The notes under the pieces are model-generated. The model saw only the letters and a program-made list of their open reading frames with translations, did not search any database and was not told where the DNA came from. The translations under genes and the position numbers were made by a program. DNA of 64,000 nucleotides from Acetobacteroides hydrogenigenes (lineage in GTDB: Bacteria > Bacteroidota > Bacteroidia > Bacteroidales > ZOR0009). Shown one piece after another: positions 1-53,541 of this stretch. The stretch lies in assembly GCF_004340205.1 (NCBI RefSeq), contig NZ_SLWB01000001.1, positions 1 through 64,000 of the forward strand. The letters run 5' to 3'. Position 1 is the stretch's first letter. The number at the start of each line of letters is the position of its first letter.

Positions 1-87
<87 letters not shown>

Positions 88-266
88 TAGAAGATGTTTA
101 TTTCGGAAAATTGCTTTTCCTAAGTTGTTTCCTTAGCCCATCAGGATTTACGTTAGTATAATTAAATCATCCTAATCGTCTTTTCTATCTTTCTCACTGC
201 ACTTCCTCAAAGAACCTGTTTCCATCCGCGCTTCTCAGCGCGTCCCGCTCTCTCGTTTGCGGGCTG

Positions 267-7942: not shown

Positions 7943-9355
7943 ATGGAACGCGAAATTCTTAGCACAAAGCAAAAGGCCCTTATCATAAACCTCGACGATA
8001 CCAAGTACGGCACCTTTGCCGAAATTGGCGGAGGACAAGAGGTGGCCCGAGCCTTTTTTCAGGCGGGAGGTGCCTCGGGAACCATTGCCAAGACCATTTC
8101 GGCCTACGACAAAACCTACTCCGACTACTACTACGACAGCAAGGATAAAGAGCGATACGTATCGGAGGCAAGGCTAAAAAAGATGCTCAGCCACGAGTAT
8201 AACGAGATGCTGAGCATCCTTGCCGAAAAGGCAAGACCCGATCAACGCTTCTTTGTATTTGCCAATACGGTAGAGACCATCAGCTTCAAGAAGGATAACC
8301 AGGGCAACGGATGGCTGGGCGTTAAGTTCGAGCTAAGCCAACGCGGCGCCCCAAACGAGGTTGTGGTACACGTGCGCCTAAAGGAAAACGACTCGTTGCT
8401 GCAGCAGCAAACCTTGGGCACCTTAGGCGTAAACCTAATTTGGGCTTGCTACAACCATACCTCGACGCCTAACACCTTCCTACAGTCGCTGCTCGATAAC
8501 CTAGATACCGATCGTGTGGAGATTACCATGGCACGAATGACAGGCCCCGATCTGCAATGGCTCGACAACCGCCTGCTGGGCGTGCAGCTGGTAAAGAATG
8601 GAATGACCCCTGCCGTGATGTTCGACCGATATGGGAACGTACAGCAGCCCTCCGACATGCTCTACCGCAAAAACGTGCTGGCTTTCCGTGGCAGCTTCCG
8701 CCCCATTACCTACGTAAACCTGGATATGCTCAAAACCAGCTACGCCATCTTTAAAACCGACGAAGACTACTCGCGCGACAGCACCATATCGCTCTGCGAG
8801 ATCACCCTAAACAACCTGATGAGCGAAGGTGAATTCCACGAGCGCGACTTCCTCGACCGGGTAGACCTGCTAAACCATATGGGGCAGCACGTGATGATCT
8901 CCAAATTCCGCGAGTACTACAAGCTGGTGGACTACTTCGGGCGGTTTAAGCTCAAGAAGCTGCGCATCGTTATCGGGTACCCAACCTTCGAAAAGGTGTT
9001 CGATCCGGTTTACTATACCGACCTTAGAGGGGAGATCCTCGAAGCCTTTGGCTCGCTTTTCCCCAATAACATGAAGTTCTACATCTACCCAATGCTCGAT
9101 AAGAGTACGGGAAACCTGCTTCACTCCCAAGACCTAAACCTAAGCCCAGAGCTTAGGTGCCTTTACGACTACCTCCTCAGCACCCGAAAGATTATCGACA
9201 TAAAAAACGCCAAGAAGGAGTGGCTGAGCATCACCTCCAACGAGGTGCTAAGGCTCATGCAGGAGGGTGATCGTAGATGGGAAGCGATGGTGCCAAAGCA
9301 CGTTCGCGAAATTGTAAAGCAGCGCTGCCTGTTCGACTATAAATGCGACGATTAA
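7943..9355 (+). CDS. conserved protein of unknown function, 470 aa
   Basis: A soluble-looking 470-aa protein without signal peptide or membrane segments. The N-terminal block (KALIINLDDTKYGTFAEIGGGQEVARAFF, then GASGTIAKTISAYDKTYSD) is a strongly conserved signature that I associate from memory with a widespread bacterial family. Database entries of that family often carry doubtful labels such as TonB-dependent receptor or nicotinate-nucleotide adenylyltransferase. I see no TonB-receptor barrel, no plug, and no HxGH nucleotidyltransferase motif, so neither label is supported. A glycine-rich GGGQEVARAFFQAGG stretch could bind a phosphate, but this is a guess. The gene stands alone, divergent from ftsK and convergent with the glycosylase gene. 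An imperfect hairpin at 9388-9410 lies between the convergent genes. Confidence 0.8.
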   Translation: MEREILSTKQKALIINLDDTKYGTFAEIGGGQEVARAFFQAGGASGTIAKTISAYDKTYSDYYYDSKDKERYVSEARLKKMLSHEYNEMLSILAEKARPDQRFFVFANTVETISFKKDNQGNGWLGVKFELSQRGAPNEVVVHVRLKENDSLLQQQTLGTLGVNLIWACYNHTSTPNTFLQSLLDNLDTDRVEITMARMTGPDLQWLDNRLLGVQLVKNGMTPAVMFDRYGNVQQPSDMLYRKNVLAFRGSFRPITYVNLDMLKTSYAIFKTDEDYSRDSTISLCEITLNNLMSEGEFHERDFLDRVDLLNHMGQHVMISKFREYYKLVDYFGRFKLKKLRIVIGYPTFEKVFDPVYYTDLRGEILEAFGSLFPNNMKFYIYPMLDKSTGNLLHSQDLNLSPELRCLYDYLLSTRKIIDIKNAKKEWLSITSNEVLRLMQEGDRRWEAMVPKHVREIVKQRCLFDYKCDD

Positions 9356-10532: not shown

Positions 10533-10952
10533 CTGCACGCTGTTACTTTCTAACCTCTCATAGTTGCCTCCCAACCTTATGCCTACGGCTTCTAACCAAA
10601 CACTGTTGCCTTCCAACCTTACGCTTGCGCCTTCTAACTAGGCACCGTTGCTTTCTAAGTTTACGATTGCTCCTTCTAACTAGGCATCGTTGCTTTCTAA
10701 GCTTACGGTTGCGGCGTCTAACTAGGCGCTGTTGCCTTCCAACCTTACGGTTGCGGCTTCTAACTAGGCGTTGTCGCTTTCTAAGCTTACGATTGCTCCT
10801 TCTAACTAGGCGTTGTCGCTTTCTAAGCTTACGATTGCTCCTTCTAACTAGTCACCGTTGCCTTCTAACCTTATGCTTGCAGTTTCTAAGTAGGCGTTGT
10901 TGCTTTCTAACCTTACGGTTGTGGCTTCTAACCAAGCATCGGAAGTTTCTAG
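10533..10952 (-). repeat. tandem array 1: 20 units of 21 bp (42-bp superunit), heptapeptide-coding
   Basis: Twenty consecutive 21-bp units stay in register without an indel. On the minus strand each unit starts TTAGAA (or a close variant) and reads as a heptapeptide L-E-x-x-x-[A/V/I]-x. Odd and even units alternate, for example LESNNAY / LETASIR and LESDNA* / LEGAIVS. An in-frame ATG at 10979 opens the run (MQQAPSAAP, then repeats). The sixth codon set hits TAG at 10848-10850; five more units carry TAG at the same seventh position where intact units have TGG (Trp) or TAC (Tyr). As it stands only 43 residues could be made from that ATG. It is either a decayed repeat gene or a non-coding array that keeps codon periodicity. 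Confidence 0.85.
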
Positions 10953-47157: not shown

Positions 47158-47346
47158 CCTCCTCGAAGCAGGGTGCACCCTGCAAAAAGCAAGGTATACC
47201 CTGCAAAAAGCAGGGTGTAGGCTGCAATTTGCAGGGTCGACCTTCAAAAAAGCAGGGTACAGGCTGCAATTTGCAGGGTGTACCTTGCAAAAAGGAGGGT
47301 GAAGGCTGCAAAAAGCAGGGTCGACCTTCCAAAAAGGAGGGTGCAG
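47158..47346 (+). repeat. tandem array 2: nine units of 21 bp, each with a small hairpin
   Basis: Nine units in strict 21-bp register with consensus near CCTGCAAAAAGCAGGGTGYAC. Most contain a self-pairing CTGCAAAAAGCAG or CTGCAATTTGCAG. Alternation of AAAAA and AATTT cores hints at a 42-bp superunit. In one plus-strand frame the units read as heptapeptides (LQKAGCR, LQFAGST, FKKAGYR); other frames on both strands are also open for long stretches because 21 is a multiple of three. Degenerate units seem to reach back to about 47115. No start codon, upstream signal or stable frame marks it as a gene. It fills most of the 47044-47547 gap. Confidence 0.85.
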
Positions 47347-47547
47347 GCTGCTTTTTCGGGAGTGTTTGTTCCGAATAAGCACAACCACACCGAAAAGCTG
47401 CTACTTTAGCAAGCCTATCGTATAGCAGTAACCTTTAAGCTATAGGTAAAGCGGAAATATACGTAGGTAGCTGCGTAGATATAGGTTTTGTAGCCAATTA
47501 TAAAAAAGGACAGTATTATTCCCTTAATAATAAAAGGAGTCTGAATT

Positions 47548-48938: not shown

Positions 48939-49211
48939 AGCAGAGCCTACTCTTAGCAGAGTACTCCCAAAGCAGTTCTCTCCTTCCCTCTTCCCCCCGC
49001 GCCCCCCACCTGCGCACAATCCATAAACGCCTCTCAAAATTCTAGGCTTATACATATCAAACATTTGTTCCTTATAACAAATAAACGTAGTGGTATATCG
49101 GCTGCTTTACGAAAACATCCTTACCCGAAAGGTGCTTAAATAGCCAAATCTGTAAGATTGCCAATCTGTAAATACCTGATCCTTTACTATTAAATAGAAC
49201 GAAAAGAAGCA

Positions 49212-49240
49212 TTGCACCGAGCTATCGGTAGATATTTTTT
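49212..49240 (+). promoter_or_regulatory. candidate promoter of the thr operon
   Basis: TTG (49212-49214), 18 bases, TATTTTTT: one mismatch from TAnnTTTG, with TTG following. The predicted start would lie about 70 nt before the leader peptide. Chosen for position and spacing; not strong on its own. Confidence 0.35.
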
Positions 49241-49315
49241 TTGATATTGCCCAAAGTCAAAATAAAGAGCAAGCGCTTGAAGCAGATTTTCTCACATATC
49301 GCCTCAACTCCTACC

Positions 49316-49417
49316 ATGCCACTATCGGTGGCTGCGCTTGCTATTGCTGGTATTGGTACCGGGCTTTGCCCTACTATTACTATAACTATTACCACAGCTA
49401 CAACTACAACCCTGTAA
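49316..49417 (+). CDS. thrL: thr operon leader peptide (Thr/Ile-rich)
   Basis: A 33-codon ORF (ATG 49316, TAA 49415-49417) whose last part reads TITITITTATTTT followed by Leu and stop: nine Thr and three Ile codons in a run of 13. It lies about 100 nt before thrA, the first enzyme gene of threonine synthesis. Such a run of the regulatory amino-acid codons is the hallmark of attenuation: ribosomes stall when charged tRNA-Thr or tRNA-Ile is scarce. E. coli ThrL has the same Thr/Ile design but no sequence relation. The stop codon lies inside a hairpin (49407-49424), linking ribosome position to RNA folding. Confidence 0.85.
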   Translation: MPLSVAALAIAGIGTGLCPTITITITTATTTTL

Positions 49418-49480
49418 GGGGTTGCGTTGTTCCATATTAACCACAGACCATTTTATGGTAGCCTCTACAGGGAGATGTAG
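49407..49480 (+). promoter_or_regulatory. thr attenuator: mutually exclusive RNA hairpins
   Basis: Two local hairpins, CAACCC..GGGTTG (49407-49424) and CTACA..TGTAG (49465-49480), compete with one long-range pairing, CCCTGTAAGGGG (49410-49421) with CCTCTACAGGG (49462-49472). The first overlaps the leader stop codon. None is followed by a good U-tract, so the switch may act through Rho or by exposing the thrA start region rather than by a classical terminator. Confidence 0.55.
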
Positions 49481-49515
49481 AAGCTGAATTCTTGTCCAAT
49501 ATCAATTTCCAACAT

Positions 49516-51960
49516 ATGAGAGTCCTAAAATTTGGAGGTAGCTCGGTAGCAACACCTCAAAGCGTAGAAGCGGTGCTAAGCATCGTCAAGCAGTCGGCCG
49601 AAAAGCGGCCCATCGCCTTTGTTGTTTCGGCCATGGGCGGCATAACCGACATGCTGCTGATGGCCGGCCGATTGGCAACCGTGCAGAGCGAGGAGTACAA
49701 GCAGATTATTGCCGAGATCGAGAATCGCTTTCTCGAATACGTGCGCCACATGCTGCCCATCACCACCCAAAGCGCCACGCTAAGCATGGTGAAGCAGCAG
49801 ATAAACACCATCGAGGAGATCTGCAACGGGGTGTTTGTGCTGCAGGAGATGTCGCCGCGCACCTCCGATCGGCTGGTGTCGTTTGGCGAGCTGATCACCT
49901 CGCGCATCATCTCGGCAAAGATGGAGGCCGATGGCATTCCTCACGCGTGGATCGACAGCCGCGAGCTGATAAAGACCAACAGCAAGTTTGGCCACGCGGC
50001 GGTAAGCTTCTCGGCAACGAATAGGCTTATTCGGAAGTGCTTCGAGGCTTCGACCGAGCGAATCGCCATACTCCCCGGCTTTGTTGCCTCCGACGACTTT
50101 GGCAACACCACCACCCTAGGCCGTGGCGGATCGGACTACACCGCTGCCATACTTGCCGCAGCGCTAAGCGCCAGCCGCCTGGAGATCTGGACTGATGTTA
50201 GCGGCATGATGACCGCCGACCCCCGCCAGGTACGCAACGCCAAGCCCATAGAGAGCATCTCGTACCAAGAGGCGATGGAGCTGTCGCACTTTGGCGCCAA
50301 GGTGCTCTATCCGCCCACCGTGCAGCCGGTGATGCGCAAGAAGATTCCGCTATGGATAAAGAACACCTTTGCCCCTGCCGATCACGGCACGCTGATTACC
50401 GACTCTGCTCACGACGGAAGCGAAAAGATTAGCGGGCTATCGAGCATCAGCAGCATTGCCCTGCTTAGCCTCGAAGGGGCTGGCATGGTTGGCATACCTG
50501 GCTTCTCGAAGCGCCTCTTTGCCGCGCTAGCCGGCGAGGGTGTGAATGTTATTCTGATTACCCAGGGCTCTTCGGAGCACTCGATATGCGTTGCCATCAG
50601 CGAAAGCGACGAATACCGCGCCGTGAATGCCGTTAACCAGGCGTTCCATAGCGAGATTGCCGAAGGCGTGGTGTACCCCATAAAGAGCGAGCGCGACTTC
50701 TCAGTGGTTGCCCTGGTGGGTAACAGCATGGTTAACCAGCCCGGCATCAGCGGAAGGATGTTTGGCGCATTGGGGCGCAACGGCATTAACGTTAGGGCCA
50801 TTGCCCAAGGATCATCCGAAAGAAATATATCCACCGTAATATCGACCTCCGATTTACGGAAAGCACTGAACGTGCTTCACGAAAGCTTCTTCGAAACCTC
50901 GTACAAGCAGATCAACCTGTTTGTGGTGGGCGTTGGGAATGTGGGAAGCCGCCTTATAGAGCAGCTAAGGCATCAGCAGGAGTACCTGCAGGAGCAGCTA
51001 AAGCTACAGGTTAGGGTGATTGGCGTTGCCAACAGCCGCCAGATGCACTTCGACGAAGATGGCATATGCCTCGACAGCTGGAAGGAGAAGCTAAGCGTAG
51101 GATCGGCAATGAACCTCGAAAAGTTTATCGAGGTGGCGGTTGGCATGAATAAGCGCAACTCCATCTTCGTAGATAATACGGGAAGCCACGTTATTGCCAA
51201 AACCTACAAGTCGTTCCTAAAACGAAGCATATCGGTGGTAACCTGCAACAAGATTGCCTGCTCGTCGGCCTACAGCGAATACTCGGAGCTGAAGAGCCTT
51301 GCTAGAAAGTTCAACGCCCAGTTCCTGTTCGAGACCAACGTTGGCGCCGGGCTACCCGTAATCAACACCCTCAACGACCTGCTCCGCAGCGGCGACAGGG
51401 TTAGCTCCATACAGGCGGTGCTGTCGGGAACCCTCAACTTCGTATTCAACAAGTACGATGGCACCCGCACCTTTGCCGAGGTGGTGCAGCAGGCGCAGGA
51501 CGAGGGCTACACCGAGCCCGACCCACGCCTCGACCTCAGCGGAACGGATGTTATGCGTAAGATACTAATACTTGCTCGCGAATCGGGCCGTGTGCTGGAG
51601 ATGGAGCAGATAAAGAACGCCGAATTCCTGCCCGAGTCGTGCATGGAGGGTGATATCGCCAGCTTCTACGGCGAGGTTGCCAAGCACGAAGCCCACTTTA
51701 AAGAGCTGCTCGAAAAGGCACAAGTCGAGGGCAAGCGCCTGAAGTATATCGCAACGCTTAAGGGTGATAAGGCATCGGTAGGCCTGCAGGCCGTTAGCCC
51801 AACAAGCGACTTCTACAACCTCGATGGTAAGGATAACGCCGTGCTCTTCTTCACCGACCGCTACAAGGAGCAGCCGCTGGTGGTAAAAGGAGCAGGGGCA
51901 GGTGCTGAGGTAACAGCCTCTGGAATCTTCTCCGACATTATTAGGGCGGCAAGGGTTTAG
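49516..51960 (+). CDS. thrA: bifunctional aspartate kinase / homoserine dehydrogenase I
   Basis: Catalyses the first and third steps of threonine synthesis. I set the start at ATG 49516 (MRVLKFGGSSV), which matches the start of E. coli ThrA; a TTG at 49492 would add eight residues. The 814-aa protein has an aspartokinase domain (KFGGSSV near 4, GRGGSDYTA near 204), and a regulatory region with two ACT units (LLSLEGAGMVGIPG near 322, and VALVGNSMVNQPGISGRMF near 404). The homoserine dehydrogenase follows, with a Rossmann motif VGVGNVGSRL (near 475), ETNVGAGLPVI and SGTLNFVFNKYDG. It is complete, and heads the thrABC operon behind the leader peptide. Feedback by threonine is expected from the ACT units. 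Confidence 0.97.
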   Translation: MRVLKFGGSSVATPQSVEAVLSIVKQSAEKRPIAFVVSAMGGITDMLLMAGRLATVQSEEYKQIIAEIENRFLEYVRHMLPITTQSATLSMVKQQINTIEEICNGVFVLQEMSPRTSDRLVSFGELITSRIISAKMEADGIPHAWIDSRELIKTNSKFGHAAVSFSATNRLIRKCFEASTERIAILPGFVASDDFGNTTTLGRGGSDYTAAILAAALSASRLEIWTDVSGMMTADPRQVRNAKPIESISYQEAMELSHFGAKVLYPPTVQPVMRKKIPLWIKNTFAPADHGTLITDSAHDGSEKISGLSSISSIALLSLEGAGMVGIPGFSKRLFAALAGEGVNVILITQGSSEHSICVAISESDEYRAVNAVNQAFHSEIAEGVVYPIKSERDFSVVALVGNSMVNQPGISGRMFGALGRNGINVRAIAQGSSERNISTVISTSDLRKALNVLHESFFETSYKQINLFVVGVGNVGSRLIEQLRHQQEYLQEQLKLQVRVIGVANSRQMHFDEDGICLDSWKEKLSVGSAMNLEKFIEVAVGMNKRNSIFVDNTGSHVIAKTYKSFLKRSISVVTCNKIACSSAYSEYSELKSLARKFNAQFLFETNVGAGLPVINTLNDLLRSGDRVSSIQAVLSGTLNFVFNKYDGTRTFAEVVQQAQDEGYTEPDPRLDLSGTDVMRKILILARESGRVLEMEQIKNAEFLPESCMEGDIASFYGEVAKHEAHFKELLEKAQVEGKRLKYIATLKGDKASVGLQAVSPTSDFYNLDGKDNAVLFFTDRYKEQPLVVKGAGAGAEVTASGIFSDIIRAARV

Positions 51961-52045
51961 CTGGTAACGAATTAATGTCAATTAGTTAACGTCAGTTCAA
52001 CGTAAGAAGATAATGTTAAAAAGCAAAGGTTGCTAAGCGGGTATT

Positions 52046-52170
52046 CCCCTCCTTTTTAAGGAGGGGTGCCCGAAGGGCGGGGTGGTTTTAGTCGATACAG
52101 CAAGAAATTATCTGATTTTTCAACTACAACCACCCCCGGCTGCGCCGACCCCTCCTTGAAAAGGAGGGGA
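52046..52170. repeat. MITE-like inverted-repeat element between thrA and thrB
   Basis: Inverted arms of about 42 bp: CCCCTCCTTTTTAAGGAGGG, then TGCCCGAAGGGC and GGGGTGGTT on the left; AACCACCCC, then GGCTGCGCC and CCCCTCCTTGAAAAGGAGGG on the right, around a 40-bp centre. Each arm is itself palindromic (CCTCC..GGAGG). It has no ORF. Similar CCCCTCC elements are, from memory, common in Bacteroidota intergenic regions. It sits inside the operon, so the transcript should carry a long hairpin between thrA and thrB. Confidence 0.8.
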
Positions 52171-53198: not shown

Positions 53199-53299
53199 GG
53201 TAACGAAGTTCGGACTAAGCGTAGGCAGTGGCCACACAGAATAAGGCCAGAGAGAATAGCCTTCCGAATTCAAACGTATAAGGTCCAATAGACGCAGTT

Positions 53300-53406
53300 T
53301 ATCCCCTCCTTGGGAGGGGTAGGGGTGGGTCAAGAAGGCAAAGTGGAGCGGGAGTCTTTGATTTAAACGAACAAACCCACCCCCTGCCCCCTCCAAGGAG
53401 GGGATA
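53300..53406. repeat. MITE-like inverted-repeat element between thrB and thrC
   Basis: Arms TTATCCCCTCCTTGGGAGGG and (GG)TAGGGGTGGGT on the left, and ACCCACCCCCTGCCCCCTCC then AAGGAGGGGATAA on the right, with about 45 bp between. It is related to the 52046-52170 element through the CCCCTCC..GGAGGGG arm and GGGGTGG/CCACCCC block, but is clearly diverged. It has no ORF. The rest of the 53199-53541 gap shows nothing. Confidence 0.8.
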
Positions 53407-53541
53407 AGCAGCCTTGATTATGCATTAGGCTTTGAGAAAAACCTTAGCTTGACGGCTACAGGATGCTATGCTTAGCCCGGAGCCATAACCGTGGAACCGT
53501 TAAGGCGTAATTCCATCATCATCAAAAAAAAAGAAAAACCA

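What the first reader, a model, noticed from the sequence alone, without database searches (positions are those of the whole stretch)
49316..49417. Unannotated threonine leader peptide upstream of thrA
A 33-codon ORF contains nine Thr and three Ile codons within 13 codons and ends about 100 nt before thrA. This is the classical design of an attenuation leader, here in a Bacteroidota-type genome, where such leaders are rarely annotated. Sequence is unrelated to the enterobacterial ThrL, so it would be independent or strongly diverged.
Basis: partly seen in the sequence, partly recalled or inferred. Interest (0 to 1): 0.65.

Follow-up and report, generated by a model that had tools for sequence, protein, structure and literature searches.

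The report
Threonine leader peptide with unusual RNA
A short threonine-rich coding stretch in front of a bacterium's threonine-making genes is real and shared with distant relatives, so it probably acts as a threonine gauge for those genes, although the usual RNA stop signal of such gauges is not visible here.

Summary
The ORF at 49316-49417 contains TITITITTATTTT, the only 13-codon window with at least 9 Thr in six frames of the 64 kb, and ends 98 nt before thrA of a thrA-thrB-thrC cluster. The proposed start is probably wrong: a sister species has CTG at that ATG but keeps the frame from an in-frame TTG at 49277, and a third relative has ATG there. The leader is then 46 codons.

Of 80 named thrA relatives, 67 carry such a Thr-rich ORF, against 2 of 80 on the reverse strand. 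65 of 80 share an RNA core absent from Rfam: a hairpin over the leader's stop codon (H1), CAUAU roughly a dozen nt later, then a short second hairpin. A model built without the window finds the window's copy as its only significant hit in this genome.

Best reading: ribosome-mediated attenuation sensing Thr and Ile. The mechanism is inferred: no U-tracted terminator follows the leader, no general antiterminator was found, and the sister shows no switch. This genome's his leader does have a strong terminator. ThrA groups with Chitinophagaceae and Hymenobacter, suggesting acquisition with its leader.

The parts
49277..49417 (+). Threonine leader ORF (revised start TTG at 49277; 46 codons and stop): (M/L)KQIFSHIASTPTMPLSVAALAIAGIGTGLCPTITITITTATTTTL
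   Evidence: Frame and TTG conserved in sister G002, where the ATG at 49316 is CTG; ATG at the corresponding place in G013
49373..49411 (+). Regulatory codon run, nine Thr and three Ile codons in 13
   Evidence: Only window with 9 or more Thr of 13 in six frames of the 64 kb
49348..49382 (+). Early hairpin inside the leader ORF, closing GGGCUUUGCCC
   Evidence: Single-sequence fold
49407..49424 (+). Hairpin H1 (CAACCCU GUAA GGGGUUG), with the leader stop codon in its loop region
   Evidence: Fold; mean z -4.6 over 63 loci, which were picked by a pattern that itself favours such a hairpin; C-G to U-A change in 5 of 70 distinct rows at one pair
49432..49439 (+). Sequence-conserved CCATATTA segment (core CATAT)
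   Evidence: Near-invariant in alignments A1 to A3
49447..49459 (+). Hairpin H2 (ACCAU UUU AUGGU)
   Evidence: ACCAU/UUA/AUGGU in the sister, ACCUAU/AUAGGU in G013, GGGCU..AGCU-like at the same place in the other relatives; statistical support over all rows is weak
49460..49485 (+). Hairpin H3 (AGCCUCUACA GGGAGA UGUAGAAGCU); terminator position but weak tail GAATTCTTGTCC
   Evidence: Fold; the sister's 3' arm differs but still pairs, and similarity stops just after it
49395..49486 (+). Alternative long-range pairing of the leader tail (49395-49425) with 49458-49486, excluding H1 and H3
   Evidence: MFE of 49345-49490; duplex z -4.6 here, -2.0 in the sister, against shuffled downstream sequence
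49516..51960 (+). thrA, fused aspartokinase and homoserine dehydrogenase
   Evidence: NF006959.0, 1026 bits
52272..53198 (+). thrB, homoserine kinase
   Evidence: NF002288.1 and TIGR00191.1
53491..54843 (+). thrC, threonine synthase (start codon uncertain; scanned from 53539)
   Evidence: TIGR00260.1, 272.6 bits

Best explanation
The ORF (revised to 49277-49417) is a translated threonine, and probably isoleucine, sensing leader peptide that controls thrABC in cis. Proposed steps: a ribosome translating the leader slows at the Thr/Ile codons when charged tRNA is scarce. Its position decides whether the leader tail and H1 are covered or free, and so which downstream RNA structure forms before RNA polymerase reaches thrA. 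In the window, a ribosome held early in the run leaves the tail free to pair with 49458-49486 and blocks H3; a ribosome that reaches the stop covers the tail, and H3 forms. Shown: codon run, conservation, RNA core, operon context. Inferred: translation, direction of the switch, and that the output is transcription read-through.
For: Codon run unique in the window. 67 of 80 thrA loci have a Thr-rich ORF (4 or more Thr of 13) ending 50-200 nt before thrA, against 2 of 80 on the reverse strand and 2.4 of 80 in Markov copies. All four Thr codons are used in the runs (ACA 163, ACC 124, ACT 101, ACG 43). The indel between sister species in the run is in frame, 6 nt. RNA model R1, built from 38 sequences without the window, its sister or G013, finds the window copy as the only significant match in its genome (E 5.9e-5, next 1.39), and also the sister and G013 copies. 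Operon confirmed as thrA-thrB-thrC. Folding only what lies beyond a ribosome's edge gives P(H3) 0.01 for early codons and 0.88-0.89 near the stop. Hymenobacter L081 and L096, whose ThrAs fall in the same 29-row group, show such a switch onto a predicted terminator with a T5 tract.
Against: No U-tracted terminator after the leader. Of 63 loci that fitted the element pattern (L081 and the window among them), 7 have a terminator-like hairpin after H1 by a lenient rule, 2.5 expected: a small excess only. No complementarity of the H1 3' region with downstream sequence (mean z +0.33) and little of the leader tail (mean z -0.57; about 11 of 63 below -1.5). The sister's H3 forms at all positions tested but one (0.72 there, 1.0 elsewhere), and G013's always (0.99-1.0). 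The switch in the window is not monotone codon by codon. Controls with clear terminators (his leader of this genome, L013, L050) show no equilibrium switch either, so the test discriminates poorly. G013's leader has more Ser than Thr in its run (TSTSSTSSSTL). Most sister-species substitutions in the leader change the amino acid (6 of 8). No expression data.
Confidence: 0.74

Rival explanations
1. Leader peptide sensing as above, but the output is not intrinsic termination: H1 is a hairpin that stabilises an RNA polymerase pause at CAUAU, and the outcome is decided by ribosome-polymerase coupling or Rho.
For: The last U of CAUAU lies 11-14 nt past the last H1 pair in 47 of 62 rows; one-nucleotide length differences around CAUAU put it into different frames, so it is not coding (read by eye); only a small excess of terminators downstream (7 of 63 against 2.5).
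Against: The pause reading rests on recalled E. coli pause geometry; no pausing or Rho data for this group were searched for or seen; CAUAU could be a protein site or a tertiary contact.
Confidence: 0.3
2. H1 itself is a weak terminator: a ribosome slowed over its 5' arm (the last Thr codons) keeps it from forming; a ribosome that finishes and leaves lets it form and stop transcription.
For: By a loosened rule H1 is flagged as terminator-like in the window (tail CGTTGTTC) and in G013 (tail TCTATTTC); H1 is the best kept structure.
Against: The tail is poor in U; a ribosome at the stop codon, which is in the loop, would also block H1; does not explain CAUAU, H2 or H3.
Confidence: 0.1
3. Translational control: the leader and its RNA change access to the thrA start or provide translational coupling, with no effect on transcription.
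For: H3 ends 30 nt before the thrA ATG, and the last 14 nt before the ATG are unpaired in the fold of the 165 nt upstream, so the start region could be opened or closed by neighbours.
Against: 98 nt between leader stop and thrA makes coupling unlikely; Hymenobacter members of the same ThrA group have predicted transcription terminators. None of my folds included the thrA start codon itself, so this was not tested directly.
Confidence: 0.12
4. Chance low-complexity repeat of ACN/ATN codons, not translated.
For: The run is repetitive, and the same stretch reads as Tyr/Asn-rich in another frame (codon list).
Against: Such an ORF at the same place in 67 of 80 loci against about 2 expected; stop codon inside a conserved hairpin; in-frame indel between sister species.
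Confidence: 0.04
5. A functional small (membrane) protein rather than a sensor.
For: Hydrophobic stretch SVAALAIAGIGTGLCP in the window's peptide, unchanged in the sister.
Against: That stretch is not seen in the other relatives, while the Thr/Ile tail and the RNA are; no Pfam or NCBIfam match.
Confidence: 0.03

Closest known systems
Enterobacterial thr operon leader (thrL; Rfam RF00506 Thr_leader, NCBIfam TIGR02077)
   Same: Thr and Ile codon run in a short ORF just before thrABC with a fused thrA (the enterobacterial side is recalled)
   Different: No match of the window to RF00506, TIGR02077 or Pfam; longer leader with TTG start; no U-tracted terminator found
   Same: Thr/Ile-rich leader ending shortly before thrA; the Hymenobacter ones share a stop-codon hairpin and the 29-row ThrA group
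   Different: They have predicted terminators with T tracts; the window does not; the Hymenobacter genomes have no R1 match
Leader-peptide attenuation reported for Flavobacterium psychrophilum amino acid operons (PMC9723704, passages seen)
   Same: Same phylum, same proposed principle
   Different: Its main text names neither thrA nor threonine, and the passages describe no such RNA core
his leader of this same genome (L171: MKLFNLHHHHHAACHRVWV before hisG-hisD)
   Same: Codon-run leader before the cognate operon
   Different: Followed by a perfect stem and a T7 tract

Membership tests
Ribosome-mediated amino acid attenuator (functional class) | Short ORF with a run of codons for the operon's end product | tested here: met
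   Nine Thr and three Ile in 13 codons; thrA-thrB-thrC follows
Ribosome-mediated amino acid attenuator (functional class) | Codon run conserved in relatives with the gene | tested here: met
   67 of 80 named loci; but only 5 of 17 examined same-order loci and 11 of 24 loci of a class sample
Ribosome-mediated amino acid attenuator (functional class) | Two mutually exclusive RNA structures set by ribosome position | tested here: inconclusive
   Switch computed for the window, L081 and L096; not for the sister L006, L007, L013, L050 or the his control
Ribosome-mediated amino acid attenuator (functional class) | Intrinsic terminator with U tract between leader and first gene | tested here: not met
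   None found after the leader in 49000-49600; H3 tail is GAATTCTTGTCC; only a loosened rule flags H1
Ribosome-mediated amino acid attenuator (functional class) | Leader translated; response to Thr starvation | not testable with these tools
   No transcript or footprint data
Rfam RF00506 Thr_leader | Score over the family's gathering cut-off | tested here: not met
   No match in the window; four weak matches elsewhere in the genome, none over the cut-off; not among the six matches at E up to 10 for 49150-49560
NCBIfam TIGR02077 thr operon leader peptide | Score over the curated cut-off | tested here: not met
   No match for the 46-aa or 33-aa form; of the five peptides scanned only the L163 leader touches it, E 0.051, below cut-off
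R1 element (H1, CAUAU, H2; defined here) | Match to a model built without the window | tested here: met
   39 bits, E 5.9e-5 in the whole genome

The most novel reading that the evidence does not exclude
A Bacteroidota thr leader RNA, not listed in Rfam, in which the ribosome's progress is read not by an intrinsic terminator but through a hairpin over the leader's stop codon and a sequence-conserved CAUAU segment roughly a dozen nt downstream, possibly a hairpin-stabilised polymerase pause or a factor site; the element moved between orders together with its operon.
Probability: 0.27. Interest if true: 0.72.

Novelty: new variant of a known kind. Interest (0 to 1): 0.5.

Why it matters
A 2010 survey knew of no leader-peptide system shown outside Proteobacteria and Actinobacteria before its own Firmicutes case (PMC2965389, passage seen). 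Here a thr leader is traced through a large part of one Bacteroidota ThrA lineage, with a conserved RNA core that has no Rfam entry. Within one ThrA group some members have clear terminators (Hymenobacter) and most others none visible, which makes the question of how attenuation could work without a terminator directly testable. It also shows that leader start codons need comparative correction.

Tried and rejected
Conserved coding in another frame for the CAUAU region: rejected, because one-nucleotide length differences between H1, CAUAU and GGGC put the same nucleotides into different frames (read by eye). Pairing of the GGGC of H2 with the CCC of H1: not supported, since rows with UCCGC in H1 keep GGGC (read by eye). 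General antiterminator pairing over 63 loci: not found. Column-pair mutual information on A1: the strongest pairs are mostly neighbours, near neighbours or gap effects; pair 15-28 of H1 is the clear structural one. RNAalifold on A1 predicts only three inner pairs of H1. A second copy of the element in the genome: none significant (150 of 1771 first-look candidates scored). Sigma-70 promoter scan: none found, and not suited to this phylum. H2 tested against shuffles: median rank 0.15 over 62 rows, 40% under 0.1, weak; helix 2 on A3 is 51% paired.

Rows dropped: 39 of 102 loci did not fit the pattern used to cut the element, and that pattern favours an H1-like hairpin, so the H1 z-score is partly built in. 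Two of the 63 that fitted (L077, L081) were left out of A1; 58 were kept and 38 of these went into A2. L005 to L007, L017 and L024 were left out of the same-order count (17 of 22 loci). Three of the 24 class loci are also of the same order (L164, L166, L168). The tree used 63 ThrA proteins chosen by me from three searches.

Full report
WHAT IS THERE. The ORF at 49316-49417 reads MPLSVAALAIAGIGTGLCPTITITITTATTTTL and a stop. The 13 codons at 49373-49411 hold nine Thr and three Ile. No other 13-codon window in six frames of the 64 kb has nine Thr; the runner-up outside this ORF has eight, at 8100-8106. Thirty second-order Markov copies of the window held none with eight or more. The leader stop lies 98 nt before the thrA ATG. 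The genes after it are thrA (fused aspartokinase and homoserine dehydrogenase), thrB and thrC.

START CODON. In the sister species G002 (ThrA 96% identical) the ATG at 49316 is CTG, while the frame stays open from a TTG that corresponds to 49277 in the window. In G013 (ThrA 66% identical, a genome 61% complete) the leader starts with ATG at that place: MKHYFEHISSIFATPCSMVQSAGYGQCPTSTSSTSSSTL. Own and sister leaders are 141 and 135 nt, differing by an in-frame 6-nt indel in the Thr run and eight substitutions, six of which change the amino acid. The peptide as such is thus not strongly kept, as expected of a leader. I take 49277-49417 as the leader.

RELATIVES. One scan with the window's ThrA gave 80 named loci (the best 80 of a longer list), mostly Chitinophagaceae and unclassified Bacteroidetes. 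Of these 80, 67 have an ORF with at least 4 Thr in 13 codons whose stop lies 50-200 nt before thrA, 56 have at least 5 and 40 at least 6. The reverse strand gives 2, 0 and 0 of 80; Markov copies 2.4, 0.2 and 0.0. The 13 without one by this rule are L051, L054, L055, L059, L060, L062, L085, L086, L090, L092, L097, L109 and L113; L054, L062 and L097 nevertheless match the RNA model below. Within the same order 5 of 17 examined loci have such an ORF, and in a sample of the class 11 of 24. So the leader is common in the ThrA lineage to which the window belongs, and patchy in the order.

RNA CORE. The relatives share more than the codons: a hairpin (H1) whose loop region holds the leader stop codon, then CAUAU, then in most GGGC and AGCU forming a short hairpin (H2). 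H1 folds far better than shuffled sequence (mean z -4.6 over 63 loci), but these loci had been picked with a pattern that favours such a hairpin. One H1 pair changes from C-G to U-A in 5 of 70 distinct rows, and 8 cells over the whole structure change on both sides (none of 500 shuffles as high). The share of cells paired (75.7%) barely exceeds shuffles (75.1%), because most pairs hardly vary, and A3 was fitted to the structure. In some loci (L056, L084, L093, L097, L107) the loop has no stop codon and the ORF runs a few codons further, while H1 stays; that speaks for selection on the RNA. A covariance model R1 made from 38 of these sequences, without the window, its sister or G013, finds the window copy at E 5.9e-5; the next match in the genome has E 1.39. 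At E up to 0.05 it matches 65 of the 80 named loci, and L005, L006, L007, L146 and, weakly, L149; one further weak match lies on the reverse strand of L038. In 23 whole genomes behind named loci, 20 have a match at E up to 0.1; 19 have exactly one, G050 has a second at E 0.03, and the three without are the Hymenobacter genomes. It is rare elsewhere: 5 of 295 sampled genomes of the class, the own genome included, and 3 of 198 sampled from the order, which are the window's genome, its sister and G013; both searches used stricter filters. Rfam at gathering scores has nothing at the leader (whose one match is a 16S end at 1-88) and nothing in 17 loci searched whole.

HOW THE WINDOW DIFFERS. In the window H2 is ACCAU/UUU/AUGGU, in the sister ACCAU/UUA/AUGGU, in G013 ACCUAU/AUAGGU. 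A third hairpin, H3 (49460-49485), follows. The sister's H3 has changes in its 3' arm that keep or improve pairing, and sequence similarity falls away just after it. The leader tail is also nearly complementary to the H3 region: the MFE of 49345-49490 joins them in a long helix that excludes H1 and H3 (-45.3 kcal/mol, z -3.2; duplex z -4.6 in the window and -2.0 in the sister against 40 mononucleotide shuffles of the downstream part). When only the RNA beyond a ribosome's leading edge is folded, P(H3) is 0.01 for a ribosome early in the run and 0.88-0.89 near the stop, with uneven steps between. This is the behaviour expected of an attenuator. Against it: the sister's H3 forms at all tested positions but one, and equilibrium folding shows no switch for L007, L013, L050 or the his leader of this genome, so the test has little power in either direction.

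TERMINATOR. No terminator-like site was found between the leader and thrA; the only one in 49000-49600 is at 49216-49229, before the leader. H3 is followed by GAATTCTTGTCC. A loosened rule flags H1 itself, with the tail CGTTGTTC. Of 63 loci that fitted the element pattern, 7 have a hairpin with a T-rich tail after H1 by a lenient rule, where shuffles give 2.5, and 4 against 1.3 by a stricter one: a small excess. In contrast Hymenobacter L050, L081 and L096 and the unnamed L013, L159, L163 and L165 have clear terminators. The same genome carries a his leader, MKLFNLHHHHHAACHRVWV, before hisG and hisD, followed by AAACCAACCTGATGTTCAGGTTGGTTTTTTTG. So the organism's his operon has the look of a textbook attenuator, and the thr operon does not.

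ORIGIN. In a tree of 63 ThrA proteins the window, its sister and G013 fall in a group of 29 rows with Chitinophagaceae, Hymenobacter and others (SH-aLRT 99). Of the 20 other same-order rows, 18 lie in a separate group of 27 (SH-aLRT 99); L008 and L021 lie apart from both. The tree is a quick one, midpoint-rooted, with 19 open forks, two long rows (L013, L021) and five rows of deviant composition, the three Hymenobacter among them. Transfer of the operon with its leader is the simplest reading; ancient duplication and loss is not excluded. The third genome of the genus, G001, has only a 31% aspartokinase match.

MECHANISM AND NAME. I judge it very likely that this is a Thr (and Ile) leader peptide, and likely that it works by ribosome-mediated attenuation. 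Because a defining feature of the canonical class (U-tracted terminator) was tested and not met, I do not file it as a canonical attenuator but as something that works like one. The conserved CAUAU, whose last U lies 11-14 nt past H1 in 47 of 62 rows, is unexplained; a hairpin-stabilised pause is a guess from recalled E. coli geometry.

LITERATURE. Seen as passages found by term: PMC9723704 reports strong clues for leader-peptide attenuation upstream of amino acid operons in Flavobacterium psychrophilum; PMC7366714 mentions short ORFs reminiscent of leader peptides in Bacteroides thetaiotaomicron; [quoted passage not shown] PMC1262725, PMC4833913 and PMC3766115 gave background. Among the titles and abstract beginnings listed by the searches I saw no description of a Bacteroidota thr leader; the library holds only open-licence papers, and supplements could not be read. 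Vitreschak and others 2004 was seen only as a citation; I recall, unchecked, that its abstract mentions Bacteroidetes/Chlorobi, so priority for the general idea may lie there.

Noticed in passing
L171 (own genome C13, around 86833), reverse strand: Histidine leader MKLFNLHHHHHAACHRVWV before hisG-hisD, followed by a perfect stem and T7: the look of a textbook attenuator in the same genome.
   Followed up: partly
L008, L014, L021, L023, L155, L168 upstream of thrA: A second leader type ending in TTTPWGV-like residues over a CCCC..GGGG hairpin, in several families.
   Followed up: no
L159, L163, L165 upstream of thrA: Thr/Ile leaders (ITTITTTG-like) with strong predicted terminators, all in one family (f81) of the class.
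   Followed up: partly
L007, leader before thrA (genome G013): The codon run has turned partly to serine (TSTSSTSSSTL), which may change or widen the signal.
   Followed up: no
window 49216-49229: Short hairpin followed closely by a run of eight T just before the leader; the only terminator-like hit of the region; also present in the sister.
   Followed up: no
window 52045-52170 and 53287-53419: Inverted repeats with CCCCTCC ends between thrA and thrB and between thrB and thrC, perhaps small mobile or terminator-like repeats.
   Followed up: no
window 47166-47351 and 10586-10941: Tandem arrays in units of 21, 42 and 84 nt and of 21, 42 and 126 nt.
   Followed up: no
window 1-88, minus strand: End of a 16S rRNA gene at the window edge.
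   Followed up: no
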